64,000 nucleotides of DNA from Micromussa lordhowensis (Eukaryota; Cnidaria; Anthozoa; Scleractinia; Lobophylliidae). Under the pieces are notes generated by a model. That model saw nothing but the letters and a program-made list of their open reading frames with translations, had not been told where the DNA came from and ran no database searches. This document shows, piece by piece, positions 33,234 to 63,905 of this stretch. The DNA lies in NCBI GenBank assembly GCA_964020085.1, contig OZ026601.1, forward strand, positions 16,395,030-16,459,029, written 5' to 3'. How positions within the stretch are numbered: the stretch's first letter is position 1; each line of letters starts with the position of its first letter. The position numbers were made by a program, and so were the translations under genes.

Positions 33234-34484
33234 ATGGCGGAGGAGGTAGACTACCTCGAGACCTTTTTTCTTCATTTGATTCCTTCGCTTTTTCGTCAAG
33301 CTCAGCGAAATCTACACAGTGATAATCTCAATGTTTTAGAGTACTTTGAGCGCAGGTTAGATGATCACACCTACGTCATTAGATCCGTAATTAACCGCGC
33401 GGCCATGGGCCGAGCGCGGTTCTTGCTCTGCACGGGGTTTTTTTTTTTTCGTTTTTGTGTCACCAGACGCAGACCTCCGCGGATGATGTCTTCATCAACC
33501 AATCACAGGCCAAACTCCCACTCGGCCAAATGTCGTCACCGAATGATGTAATCATCAGCCAATTACAGGCCATTTCTCAGCTCTTTTCGTCATACCTCCC
33601 CTCCGGAAAGTTTTGTCTAGTTAGCGAATTGAATATTCATAGTCGGGGAGAAATAATTGGGCGAAAATCCCTCGGAGTTGGACGTCAAGACATTTGCAAG
33701 GATAAAGAATGTAATTTAGGACCTGTTGCTGGCAACTACGGCTGAAATTATCTAGAGTTGTATTTTTGTTTTGCTTGCATGTTCACTTTCGAAGGGAATA
33801 TTCAATGCGCTAAAGAAGGTAGTCAGCCATGGAATGCGCTGATGCTGATAAATATGACCGTATTTACTGTAATGCCCTTACGGTGATAAATAAGATCGTG
33901 TTTACTTCGCCAGAAGCAATGGTGGAGTTTTCTGGGAAAAAAAATATAACCTCGGCACTCGTCAAAACCTTTGCAAATATATATTCCTTTGAAAGGTCAA
34001 TTCTCCTTCGAGCTACAGGTAAACAAAAATCCCCGATTACCAATCACGCAACCACGCTATGCAAAGAATGTGAAATAAAATCTCTTTCAATCCAGGCACT
34101 GAGCTTACTTTGAATCATGCAATCTCTATTGTTTCCAATGGGTAATGTTTACTCGCAAAACGCTGTTGCTAAATACTTAGAAAACAGTTCAATTTTAAAA
34201 GCGCGGTTATAAGTTGTTTTCAACTTCTTGTTATACAATGCAAACAACAGAGCACAAGCGAAGACTTAATTCAGCTCTTGGATTTGTTCTATGAAGAAGT
34301 GAATGGTTTGAATATTTGTGTAATACACAAAGAAACTTTGCTTCGGAAATGGGATTCTCATATCCAGTGGAACAGTCAAAAGGGCCAGGTAGGCCAAGAT
34401 TTTACATTCCCGAAGAGGTAATCAGAGGATTACATTATGTTCATGGCGTTTGGAAAGAAGTGGCGAAAGAAGTATGCATATCTT
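33234..34484 (+). pseudogene. integrase-core-like gene, N-terminal part, split by the 29.4-kb insertion
   Basis: Coding is clear at about 34236-34484, after acceptor AAACAACAG: STSEDLIQLLDLFYEEVN, then QWNSQKG, a one-base shift, then GRPRFYIPEEVIRGL and WKEVAKEVCIS. The frame is cut at CATATCTT and resumes at 63906. Helix-turn-helix regions of this form (GRPR, I-P-E, then W-x-x-V/I-A) precede an rve-type integrase core in a gene family I know from fish and corals. Possible 5' exons are 33234-33355 (starts MAEEVDYLETFF) and 33829-34018 (starts MECADADKYDR, donor ACAG/GTAAAC), but the phase into 34236 is unresolved. It was probably an older mobile-element or domesticated gene. Confidence 0.7.
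34477..34484. repeat. target-site duplication CATATCTT, left copy
   Basis: Lies directly outside the left end of the 29.4-kb element and is identical to 63898-63905. It encodes C-I-S of the interrupted gene. Confidence 0.95.
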
Positions 34485-34561
34485 GGTAAAGCGTTCATGT
34501 TAGGCCCATAAGACGTCCCATACATATTATTAAGCTTTATATATACGATACGAAGTGTCCC

Positions 34562-36190
34562 TTTTAACCCACGTTTACCCCCATCTACCCTAAGTTACCC
34601 AAGTTTACCCTCATATACTCTAAGTTAACCACGATCACCATCATATACCCTAAGTTACCCACGTTTACCCTCATCTACCCTATGTTATCCATGTTTACCC
34701 CCATCTACCCTAAGTTACCCACGTTTACCCTCATCTACCCTAAGTCATCCACGTTTACCCCCATCTACCCTAAGTTACCCACGTTTACCCTCATCTACCC
34801 TAAGTCATCCACGTTTACCCTATCCACCCAAAGTTACCCACGTTTACCTTCATCTACCCGAAGTTAACCTCGTCCTCATCTACCCTAAGTCATCCACGTT
34901 TACCCTCATCTACTCTAAGTTACCCACGCTTACCCTCATCTACCTTAAGTTACGCACCTTTACCCTCATCTAACCTAAGTCATCCACGTTTACCCTCATC
35001 TACTCTAAGTTACCCTCGTTTACCCTTATCTACCATAAGTTAACCACGTTTACCCTCATCTAACCTAAGTCATCCACGTTTACCGTCATCTAACCTAAGT
35101 CAACCACGTTTACCCTCAACTACATTAAGTTACCCACGTTTACCCTCATCTACCCTAAGTCATCCACGTTTACCGTCATCTACCCCAAGTTATCCCCGTT
35201 TACCCTCATCTACCCTAAATTAACCACGTTTACCCTCATCTACCCCAAGGTACCCACGTTTACCCTCATTTACCCTAAGTTAACCACGTTTACCCTCATC
35301 TACCCTAAGTTACCCCCGTTTACCCTCGTCTACCCTAAGTTAACCACGTTTTTCCTCATCTACCCCAAGGTACCCACGTTTACCCTCATCTACCCTAAGT
35401 AACCCACGTTTACCATCATCTACTATAAGTTATCCACGTTTACCCTCATCTACCCTAAGTCATCCACGTTTACCCTCATCTACCCTAAGTCATCCACGTT
35501 TACCCTCATCTACCCCAAGTTACCCACGTTTTCCACTTCATAATATCTACCAGAAGTTGACCACGGTTACCCTTCTCTAGTTTAAGTTAACCACGTTATC
35601 CCTCATCTGCCCTATGTTAGCCTCGTTACATCATGTTAATCCCCATCTACCGTAAATTAACCTCTTTCTACAACCTTTAGCCTCATCTATCATAAGTTGG
35701 CCAGCTTATACCATGTTGACCCTCATTTACCTTAAGTGAACGTCGTTCTACCACGTTTACCCTTACTAGCCTAAGATGTCTTTTTTATTACCCTTTTCCC
35801 TCATCTGCTTTGAGTTAACCTTGATATACCACGTTAACCCTCATCTACCTCACGTGAACCTCGTTCTACTATGTTTACCCTCATCTACCTAAAGTTGAGC
35901 CCTTTATACCATGTTTACCCTCCTCTACCCTAAGTCGACCACTTTAAACCTCGTTAATCCTCATCTACCCTAAGTTACCCACGTTAATCCTCGTCTACCC
36001 TAAGATGACCACTTTATACCTCATTAACCCTCATCTACTGCAAGTTAGCCACGTTTTCCTTAATCTCTCCGAAGTTGATCACTTTATACCTTGTTAACCA
36101 CATTTTCCTCATCTACCCTAAGCTGACTACTTTAAGCCTCGTTAACCCTTATCTATCCTATCTAAACCACATTTACCCTCATCAGCCCAT
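34562..36190. repeat. 30-bp minisatellite, left array
   Basis: About 50 units of the type TTTACCCTCATCTACCCTAA GTTACCCACG (30 bp). They are regular to about 35530 and then become degenerate, with larger units containing CCACTTTATACC. The TACCCTAAGTTACCC core resembles telomeric CCCTAA but is not a perfect telomere repeat. Open frames through it (FTLIYPKLPT repeats) are by-products of a 30-bp period. Confidence 0.95.
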
Positions 36191-37330
36191 AATTGTCCTG
36201 AATTTTTCAAGACCTCTTAATGCGAGTTTCCGAATCGGTAATTTAATTTGTTCCTCAGTTTCCAGACCCAAAGCGCCATGAAGCCATTAAGGTATACGGT
36301 AACCGTAATTAGACGATTTTACAGATTCGGAAGGCCACTATTAGATATTTATTTCGGATGCTGTAAGAGGGCCCTCATTTGGAAAGCTAAGAAAGACTGG
36401 ACAGAAAAATTAAAGTGTATTGATTTAGCCGATGGCCCATAATCTCTAAGACGTTCCAAATAGAATGGTATGTACCATTTGATTTTCCATCCAGAATTTC
36501 CGGGTTTTCCGTGTAAATTGAAAGCGCCCTAAATCTTGTTTCCCAGCCTTTTCCAGACTAAATCCCAGTCCCAGTAATGAGTTTGGTATGTTCCACTGAG
36601 TGCAGTTATCTGGTTTGTTGTAGAATTTTTCTCTATCAAACTCCTTCCATCCTGTTATTTAGCTATTGAACTCAATTTCCAACCATCACTGTCTTTATAA
36701 TGGTAGTCATGTTTCCCACTCCCGCTTTTGTGACTTTTACTCCGTCCCGGTGACCCAAATCCCAGTTCTCATTTTACCTATTCAGGACCCTCCTATAACT
36801 ACTTTGGCAAGTTCCTTGATGGCAGCGTGGAATGTCTAAAAACATGTAATTAATTGTAGTAATAGTTTTAAGCCAAAACAAAGCGAAATGGTAGTATTTA
36901 TTTTAGACTGAATCTGGATCCCCCTAAAAAGCCACCTTTCCTTGAGCTAAGGACTTTAAAAATCTAACCGGGATTGGGATTAGTTGATAAAAACCGTCTG
37001 GATTGAGGGGAAAACTTAGTGGGGATGACGGGATTACAAGATCCTATTGGGAGCCCTCAAATTGCTGATAAAAAGTTTCAAATTGTCTTCATTTCGTGCG
37101 TGCATGTCATAATACATAGAAAGCGGTATGTGGGCTATCGTTTTTCAATGGAGTTTGCTCGTTTAGCCCTGACTACATGTTGTGTGAAGCAAAAACATTT
37201 TTGGATGAAAATGTTTGATCGTTTAGCCCGAGCTTAATTTTTGTTTTGGTCAATAAAGACACTTTGCTATGCCGCAACAGAGGTGCAGTCCGTAGCGCAA
37301 AGAAAAAGAAAAAGTCTTGTCTTTCCTTAT
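36191..37330. other. no gene recognised
   Basis: Non-coding interior next to the left array. A 64-residue plus-strand frame at 36248-36442 is unsupported. Confidence 0.4.
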
Positions 37331-63055: not shown

Positions 63056-63815
63056 ATTCTAATTAGGGGTAGATGAGGAGAAACGAGGTTAACTTAGGGT
63101 AGATAAGGGGAAACGTGGTTAACTTAGGGTAGATAAGGGGAAACATGGTTAACTTAGGGTAGATGTGGGAAGACTAATTAACTTGGGGTAGATGAGGGTA
63201 AACATGGGTACCCTGGGGTAGATGAGGGTAAACGTGGTTTAACTTAGGGTAGATGAGGGTAAACGTGGGTAACTTAGGGTAGATGAGGGTATACGTTGGT
63301 AACTTGGGGTAGATGAGGGTAAACATCGGTAACTTAGGGTAGATGAGGGTAAACGTGGATGACATAGGGTAGATGAGGGTAAACGTGGATAACTTAGGGT
63401 AGATGAGAGTAAACGTGGTTAACTTAGGGTAGATGAGGTTAAACGTGGTTAACTTAGGGTAGATGATGGTAAGCGTGGGTAACTTAGGGTTGATGAGGGT
63501 AAACGTGGATAACTTAGGGTAGATGAGGGTAAATGTTGGTAACTTAGCGTAGAAGAGGGTAAACATGGTTAACTTAGGGCAGATGAGGGTAAACGTGGGT
63601 AACTTAGGGTAGATGGGGGTAAACGTGGATGACATAGGGTAGATGAGGGTAAACATGGATAACTTAGGGTAGATGAGGGTAAACGTTGGTAACTTAGCGT
63701 AGAAGAGGGGAAACGTGGTTAACTTAGGGTAGATGAGGGTGAACGGGGGTAACTTAGGGTATATGAAGGTAAACGCGGTTTAGTTGGGGTAGAGGCGGGT
63801 TAAACGTGGGTTTAA
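63056..63815. repeat. 30-bp minisatellite, right array (inverted relative to the left array)
   Basis: About 25 units of the type AACTTAGGGTAGATGAGGGT AAACGTGGTT, the reverse complement of the left array at 34562-36190. It is shorter than the left array. The minus-strand frame of about 160 residues (FTLIYPKLPT repeats) is a by-product of the period. Confidence 0.95.
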
Positions 63816-63897
63816 AGGGACACTTCGTATTGTATATATAAAGGTAAATGAGTAATATGTATGGGACATCTTATGGGCCTAACATGAACGCTTTACC

Positions 63898-63905
63898 CAT
63901 ATCTT
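63898..63905. repeat. target-site duplication CATATCTT, right copy
   Basis: Directly outside the right terminus (CGCTTTACC) and identical to 34477-34484. Confidence 0.95.

What the first reader, a model, noticed from the sequence alone, without database searches (positions are those of the whole stretch)
34477..63905. A 29.4-kb transposon whose excision restores a reading frame
Inverted ends and exact 8-bp CATATCTT duplications bound a 29,413-bp unit. Deleting the unit and one duplication joins EVCIS directly to YNTILRRR in frame. This shows a single insertion event in an integrase-like gene. Its combination of parts (P-loop ATPase, C2H2-recombinase-Myb, RNase H-like/OTU/CXC gene, minisatellite ends) matches no element family I can name.
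Basis: seen in the sequence. Interest (0 to 1): 0.96.

Follow-up and report, generated by a model that had tools for sequence, protein, structure and literature searches.

The report
Giant coral-type two-gene DNA transposon
A 29.4-kb jumping DNA element in what looks like a coral genome carries a transposase gene next to an ATPase gene, a pairing better known from bacterial transposons; the recombinase that first seemed part of it is most likely a second mobile element that landed inside it.

Summary
The family is mobile: the same 580.8-Mb genome holds at least three more copies, one of 3,472 bp with its own 8-bp duplication AAAATTCT, one partial. The C2H2-recombinase gene lies in a separate ~5.9-kb element nested at 57127-~63066: at 5 of 9 related loci homology starts within 16 bp of the junction, and one locus is homologous along its whole length. 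Both copies that can be compared lack it. The core has two genes: a DUF6729-DDE-OTU-CXC transposase and a multi-exon P-loop ATPase. Relatives of these recur together: outside the two long copies, 11 of 35 ATPase loci lie within 30 kb of a transposase locus (shift control mean 0.59, maximum 5); recombinase loci 0 of 12. Best reading: a giant cut-and-paste transposon, nearest the Mutator-like elements, with a companion ATPase. Its transposase and the nested recombinase gene are broken in this copy. The ATPase's role is inferred.

The parts
34477..34484 (.). left target-site duplication CATATCTT
   Evidence: only two exact copies in the window
34485..34574 (+). left terminal inverted repeat, begins GGTAAAGCGTTCATG
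   Evidence: 90.4% over 94 columns to the right end; also at C3 and C6
34567..36147 (.). left minisatellite, 30-bp unit made of three ~10-bp GGGTA-type steps (on the other strand)
   Evidence: TRF rows; motif spacing: 45 of 84 steps are 10 bp and 19 are 20 bp
39941..40645 (+). ORF with GIY-YIG match, perhaps a Penelope-like remnant (recalled); not shown to be core
   Evidence: Pfam GIY-YIG E 7.8e-5; lies in a stretch absent from the C6 and C9 copies
42913..48942 (-). multi-exon P-loop ATPase gene; Walker-A-like GAPQSAKT (A in place of the usual second G); nine matched stretches
   Evidence: query model 53% to Oculina patagonica LOC144646922; stretch map. Last two stretches (44386-44126, 43185-42913) are missing in C6. 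Whether it is intact is unclear: stops were counted inside five of its matches, but that search has no intron model
52352..56193 (+). DUF6729-DDE-OTU-CXC transposase gene, broken in this copy (insertion and at least three frame changes)
   Evidence: the C6 copy has one 584-aa frame over the DUF6729-DDE part
53451..53873 (.). insertion of about 420 bp in the transposase gene, MITE-like with perfect 23-bp hairpin arms
   Evidence: absent in C6; repeats
57127..63066 (-). nested tyrosine-recombinase element of about 5.9 kb (not core); right edge uncertain by some 20 bases
   Evidence: two C8 loci begin at 57126/57127, a C1 locus is homologous in pieces from 57142 to 63056-63074; C3 and C6 copies leave the core at 57130
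57287..60369 (-). C2H2-tyrosine recombinase-Myb gene of the nested element, two frames
Evidence: 34 relatives; frames and a missing stretch against P0043.
63067..63809 (.). right minisatellite, 30-bp unit
   Evidence: TRF, 24.7 copies; 27 of 48 motif steps are 10 bp, 15 are 20 bp
63804..63897 (-). right terminal inverted repeat
63898..63905 (.). right target-site duplication CATATCTT

Best explanation
The unit is a giant cut-and-paste DNA transposon that entered a short open frame and duplicated 8 bp of target. Its core has two genes placed head to head: a DDE transposase with an N-terminal DUF6729 domain, an OTU protease-like domain and a C-terminal CXC cysteine cluster, and a multi-exon P-loop ATPase. 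Shown: the ends, the duplications, other copies, the conserved D-D-E and D(2)H residues by sequence, and the recurrent pairing of the two genes. Inferred: the transposase recognises the inverted ends and the 10-bp-phased GGGTA arrays as multiple binding sites, pairs the ends, cuts and joins them with an 8-bp stagger, and the ATPase helps assemble or regulate the complex or choose the target, in the manner of IstB, TnsC or MuB (recalled). A tyrosine-recombinase element and a MITE-like insert later landed inside this copy; its broken transposase means it could now move only with help from another copy.
For: Ends and TSD; C3 copy with its own 8-bp TSD; C6 and C9 copies about 2% diverged in aligned core bases, gaps left out: K2P 0.020 over 11,773 bp and 0.019 over 3,516 bp. 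DDE: D 27 of 27, D 29 of 29, E 24 of 24 rows with a residue, D(2)H 29 of 29 and 28 of 29, in the 29 rows of A2. A2 profile matches OTU domain structures, best E 6.7e-7. Pairing: outside the C6 and C7 copies 11 of 35 ATPase loci within 30 kb of a DDE locus, control mean 0.59, maximum 5 in 2000 shifts; within 10 kb 6 of 35, mean 0.21, maximum 3; one further broken pair at C4:3.85 Mb, found outside that list. Nested recombinase; 0 of 12 recombinase loci within 30 kb of a listed DDE or ATPase locus. Minisatellite phase.
Against: 24 of 35 ATPase loci and 46 of 57 DDE loci have no listed partner within 30 kb. Orientation of the 14 pairs within 50 kb varies: 5 head to head (counting the C6 and C7 copies), 4 tail to tail, 5 same strand. 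The C3/C5 pairs look like copies of one family, so the 11 are not all independent. Ends and duplications of the other pairs were not examined. The searches scored only part of their candidates (63 of 116 for the ATPase, 75 of 126 for DDE). The shift control does not keep fine clustering of mobile elements, and shifts run off short contigs, which lowers it. A fragment matching the OTU part (45% over 67 aa of P0009) lies about 1.8 kb from the recombinase fragment at C8:30.78 Mb; the DDE list does not count OTU-only pieces. The ATPase matches DUF927 only weakly (E 0.023 and 0.12, below cut-off). No structure could be predicted.
Confidence: 0.75

Rival explanations
1. A Starship-like cargo element: the tyrosine recombinase moves the whole 29.4 kb and the other genes are cargo.
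For: A tyrosine-recombinase-like gene lies inside the unit. A piece matching the OTU part of the transposase lies near one recombinase fragment, C8:30.78 Mb; this raised my odds from 0.05 to 0.07.
Against: The two copies with the same ends that can be compared lack it; its segment has its own boundary and relatives at 12 other loci; the unit has inverted ends and 8-bp duplications, which fit a DDE enzyme.
Confidence: 0.07
2. A one-gene Mutator-like transposon that only happens to sit with ATPase genes, the pairing being passenger capture or regional clustering of mobile elements.
For: Most ATPase loci lack a listed DDE partner, and orientation varies. Several Mutator-like elements acquire additional ORFs (PMC6446971, passage).
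Against: 11 of 35 against a shift-control mean of 0.59; recombinase loci show 0 of 12; a deeply diverged pair at C4.
Confidence: 0.2
3. An integrated virus or virus-like element of large size.
For: Large size, P-loop ATPase, inverted ends with repeats.
Against: No capsid, polymerase or packaging family among seven ORFs of the unit and six pieces of the C6 copy; other ORFs of the unit were not scanned. No relative of A2 or A3 in viral contigs by two scans.
Confidence: 0.04
4. Assembly artefact joining unrelated ends.
For: None found; raw reads were not available.
Against: Four places share the ends or subterminal sequence; two copies have exact, different 8-bp duplications; the flanks join in an open frame.
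Confidence: 0.02

Closest known systems
Mutator-like elements (MULE), in particular group 14 MuDR-6_HM from Cnidaria (PMC6446971 Table 1 and passages)
   Same: TIR element with DDE transposase, duplication within the 8-11 bp range given there, long ends, 'Ovarian Tumour Gene' listed for the cnidarian group
   Different: MULE profile only weakly matched (4 of 29 rows, best E 0.025, below cut-off); the table lists one ORF, no TIR and no ATPase for that group; giant size; sequence of MuDR-6_HM was not at hand
Rehavkus (PMC6446971 passages)
   Same: minisatellite next to the 3' inverted end
   Different: 9-bp duplication and PHD finger; here arrays at both ends and 8 bp
Foldback elements such as Tetris (PMC4079207 passages) and Galileo (as cited there)
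   Same: tandem repeats inside long inverted ends, 8-10-bp duplications for Tetris; repeats suggested as extra transposase sites
   Different: Tetris repeats are ~220 bp and its complete copies lack conserved ORFs; Galileo is a P-superfamily element
Ginger1 (PMC2836005 passages)
   Same: DDE transposase with C-terminal OTU in part of the families, diverse in Hydra
   Different: 4-bp CCGG/CCGT-type duplication and about 2.6-7 kb length
Zisupton / KDZ (PMC12730594 passages)
   Same: 8-bp duplication; large transposase with cysteine clusters (recalled)
   Different: no KDZ profile hit for the proteins looked at one by one
IS21 (IstA/IstB), Tn7 (TnsB/TnsC), phage Mu (MuA/MuB), all recalled
   Same: DDE transposase paired with an ATPase gene in one element
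   Different: bacterial; homology of the ATPase to IstB, TnsC or MuB was not found (no solved-structure hit for P0065 at E <= 1) and could not be tested by fold
Cryptons and other tyrosine-recombinase DNA elements (PMC3212892, listing and start of abstract only)
   Same: the nested element carries a tyrosine-recombinase-like gene
   Different: applies to the nested element only

Membership tests
TIR (cut-and-paste) DNA transposon | inverted ends and a fixed-length target duplication in more than one copy | tested here: met
   C7 CATATCTT and C3 AAAATTCT, both 8 bp; the other end of C6 and both ends of C9 lie in or beyond masked sequence
TIR (cut-and-paste) DNA transposon | DDE transposase with conserved triad | tested here: met
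   A2 columns, D 27/27, D 29/29, E 24/24 rows with residue; by sequence only, no structure
Mutator-like (MULE) | target duplication of 8-11 bp | tested here: met
   8 bp in two copies
Mutator-like (MULE) | MULE transposase domain | tested here: inconclusive
   PF10551 in 4 of 29 rows, best E 0.025, below cut-off; rve in 5 of 29, ISL3 in 2 of 29
Mutator-like (MULE) | placement inside MULEs on a tree with MuDR-6_HM and other references | not tested
   reference sequences not at hand
Zisupton/KDZ | KDZ transposase profile (accession recalled) | tested here: not met
   absent for the C6 piece at E <= 1 and for P0002, P0013, P0017 at E <= 5; for all 29 rows not among the 25 of 29 families shown
Ginger1 | 4-bp CCGG/CCGT duplication | tested here: not met
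   8-bp AT-rich duplications
Starship-like recombinase element | recombinase present in every full copy and responsible for the ends (definition recalled) | tested here: not met
   recombinase absent from C3 and C6 copies, own boundary; C3 and C6 are not complete copies themselves
Crypton (nested segment only) | tyrosine recombinase gene, no inverted ends | tested here: inconclusive
   motifs TRPAALENAT, TDFRK, CHSDKTANEWY in the window and similar ones in the A3 consensus, labels recalled; no Pfam recombinase match; no terminal repeats found by self-comparison
Tn7/IS21/Mu-type transposase-ATPase pair | ATPase acting with the DDE transposase in transposition | not testable with these tools
   only gene pairing shown

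The most novel reading that the evidence does not exclude
Anthozoan genomes contain a class of giant DDE transposons built on two obligate genes, a DUF6729-DDE-OTU-CXC transposase and a P-loop ATPase, an animal counterpart in design of the Tn7/IS21/Mu transposase-ATPase systems, with helically phased binding arrays at both ends; many diverged families coexist in one genome.
Probability: 0.35. Interest if true: 0.85.

Novelty: new variant of a known kind. Interest (0 to 1): 0.64.

Why it matters
Eukaryotic cut-and-paste transposons are usually small and mostly depend on one enzyme (recalled). A recurrent transposase-ATPase pair in a giant animal element would raise a testable question: whether target choice or assembly by an ATPase, as in Tn7 and Mu, also exists in animals. 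It also shows how nested elements can make one unit look like a new combination of parts.

Tried and rejected
Recombinase as part of the core: rejected after the copies and the other loci were compared. Of the 9 related loci compared, 5 begin at 57126-57142 (two C8 loci, C1, C6, C7) and 4 begin further in (57275 to 58367). Simple clean insertion of the recombinase element: not shown; about 50 bp seen at the junction in C3 and C6 are not found in the window, so bases were lost or exchanged there, and no duplication around it was identified. Viral contigs with A2 and A3 and prokaryote genomes with A2: no relatives (few peptide patterns each). Rfam: none at gathering threshold. Solved structures: only chance-level matches for the first ORF (E 0.6 and 0.99), none for P0065 at E <= 1, OTU domains for the A2 profile. 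Empty-site paralogue of the target: not completed (window:34240-34484). Rest of the recombinase element by DNA search: not completed (window:60400-63050), addressed instead by fetched loci. Papers: DUF6729 gives 0 papers; no paper describing this two-gene pairing was seen in the listings, of which only the top 4 to 15 papers each were listed; passages were read in PMC12730594, PMC6446971, PMC4079207, PMC2836005, PMC6431247. That is not proof of absence from print.
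Full report
OBSERVATION. CATATCTT occurs exactly twice in the window, at 34477 and 63898, and 29,413 bp lie between. The ends are inverted copies, 90.4% over 94 columns, and inside each lies a minisatellite of a 30-bp unit. In both arrays the motif GGGTA/GGTTA recurs mostly at 10 and 20 bp (right array 27 and 15 of 48 steps, left array 45 and 19 of 84), so the 30-bp unit is three ~10-bp steps. Joining the flanks gives a 97-codon open frame. This supports a precise insertion, but excision of any such insertion restores the old site. The target is not shown to be an integrase gene.

COPIES. The genome that holds the window has 580.8 Mb in 1383 contigs. The ends occur at C7 (this unit), at C3 as a 3,472-bp element with duplication AAAATTCT, and at C6 as an element of at least 22.9 kb whose far end runs into masked sequence; C9 holds a partial copy between masked stretches. 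The search had 206 matches, most of them minisatellite units, of which only part were listed, and it scores only its best candidates, so copy numbers are lower bounds. C6 and C9 are about 2% diverged from the window core in aligned bases. C3 keeps both ends with their arrays and 241 bp of the core.

NESTING. C3 and C6 leave the window sequence at the same point, window 57130, and go into the minisatellite after about 50 bp that the window lacks. From 57127 to the right minisatellite the window carries about 5.9 kb with the C2H2-recombinase gene. Two loci on C8 match the window at 98% and 93% beginning at 57126/57127; they are partial and end after 676 and 540 bp. A locus on C1 matches in ten pieces, 72-87% identical, from 57142 to 63056, coding and non-coding, and a direct alignment carries this to about 63074. 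In all, 5 of the 9 loci compared begin within 16 bp of the junction and 4 begin further in. So this segment is an element of its own. Its gene is in two frames and lacks a stretch that P0043 has. A further ~420-bp insert with perfect hairpin arms sits in the transposase gene and is absent in C6; C6 in turn has an ~8.1-kb insert with inverted ends of its own.

CORE GENE 1. The DDE gene runs 52352-56193 on the plus strand. In the C6 copy one 584-aa frame covers DUF6729 (E 1.9e-10) and the DDE region; OTU and CXC stretches follow, with matches below cut-off for this element and better ones in relatives (OTU E 5e-6, CXC E 1.2e-4). Thirty relatives were found. In the alignment of 29, D276, D347 and E470 (numbering of P0002) and a D(2)H motif 21 residues after the second D are conserved in nearly every row that has a residue there. 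That D(2)H motif is, from memory, typical of MULE and hAT-like enzymes; this comes from no call. Pfam gives only weak rve, MULE and ISL3 matches. In the window copy the gene is broken by the insert and at least three frame changes.

CORE GENE 2. The ATPase gene runs on the minus strand from 48942 to 42913, head to head with gene 1. A spliced model of 426 aa found three proteins (7,999 candidates scored), the best an Oculina patagonica protein with 53% identity over 94%. One of the three, annotated as PiggyBac-derived, carries both the ATPase and a piggyBac domain. The family is common in this genome, 63 exon matches grouped into 37 loci. The Walker-A-like stretch GAPQSAKT is recognisable; the only domain hint is a weak DUF927 match. 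Whether the gene is intact in the window is unclear.

PAIRING. The DDE piece has 78 matches grouped into 59 loci. Leaving out the C6 and C7 copies, 11 of 35 ATPase loci lie within 30 kb of a DDE locus, against a mean of 0.59 and a maximum of 5 in 2000 local shifts; within 10 kb, 6 of 35 against 0.21 and 3. Recombinase loci gave 0 of 12 within 30 kb, and 1 of 12 (DDE) and 2 of 12 (ATPase) within 50 kb. Another, broken pair lies at C4:3.85 Mb; it was not in the list of 78.

MECHANISM AND PLACE. The simplest account is cut-and-paste transposition by the DDE enzyme acting on the inverted ends, with the phased arrays as extra binding sites as proposed for foldback elements (PMC4079207 passages), and a staggered 8-bp joining. 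The ATPase as an assembly or target factor is an inference from the pairing and from bacterial parallels recalled from memory. By duplication length, long ends and OTU domain the nearest known group is the Mutator-like elements, with a cnidarian OTU group already listed (PMC6446971). Membership is not established, since the domain match is below cut-off and no tree was made. I rate it a new variant of a known kind, with a real chance of being more.

Noticed in passing
G000:C3:27158518-27175402 and C5:7493739-7510593: Two ATPase-DDE pairs with near-equal gaps (15,347 and 15,317 bp) and identical DDE scores, apparently two copies of another giant family.
   Followed up: partly
G000:C8:30.78 Mb (L034, L044): A piece matching the OTU part of the transposase family (45% over 67 aa of P0009) about 1.8 kb from a recombinase fragment; OTU domains also occur in other transposons, so the link is open.
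   Followed up: no
window 2873-5364 and 9255-12151: Direct duplication, 84.5% over the longest block, each copy with a 63-bp minisatellite and a similar long ORF; the first copy's ORF matches Myb (E 6.1e-6), the second was not scanned for it. A helicase-like ORF (6663-7130, minus; DUF5906 E 8.1e-5, below cut-off) lies between.
   Followed up: partly
window 16483-17178 (-): Another tyrosine-recombinase-like ORF, DUF3504 E 4.6e-12 and Phage_integrase E 1.7e-7.
   Followed up: no
G000:C6 copy, L022/L023: About 8.1-kb insertion in the transposase gene with inverted ends AGACCCTTTGTCACTTACC and a TTAA-like flank.
   Followed up: no
P0066: Stylophora protein annotated as PiggyBac-derived that joins an ATPase of this family to a piggyBac domain; gene-prediction fusion or real.
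   Followed up: no
window 13801-14329: 529-bp imperfect palindrome (self inverted match, 82.5%), snapback-like.
   Followed up: no
window 41005-41895: Tandem array of ~146/299-bp units inside the part of the unit that the C6 and C9 copies lack.
   Followed up: no
G000:C677:12662-13063 (L049): A DDE-OTU relative, 76% to P0011 over 399 aa, so more than one lineage of this transposase is fairly well kept in this genome.
   Followed up: no
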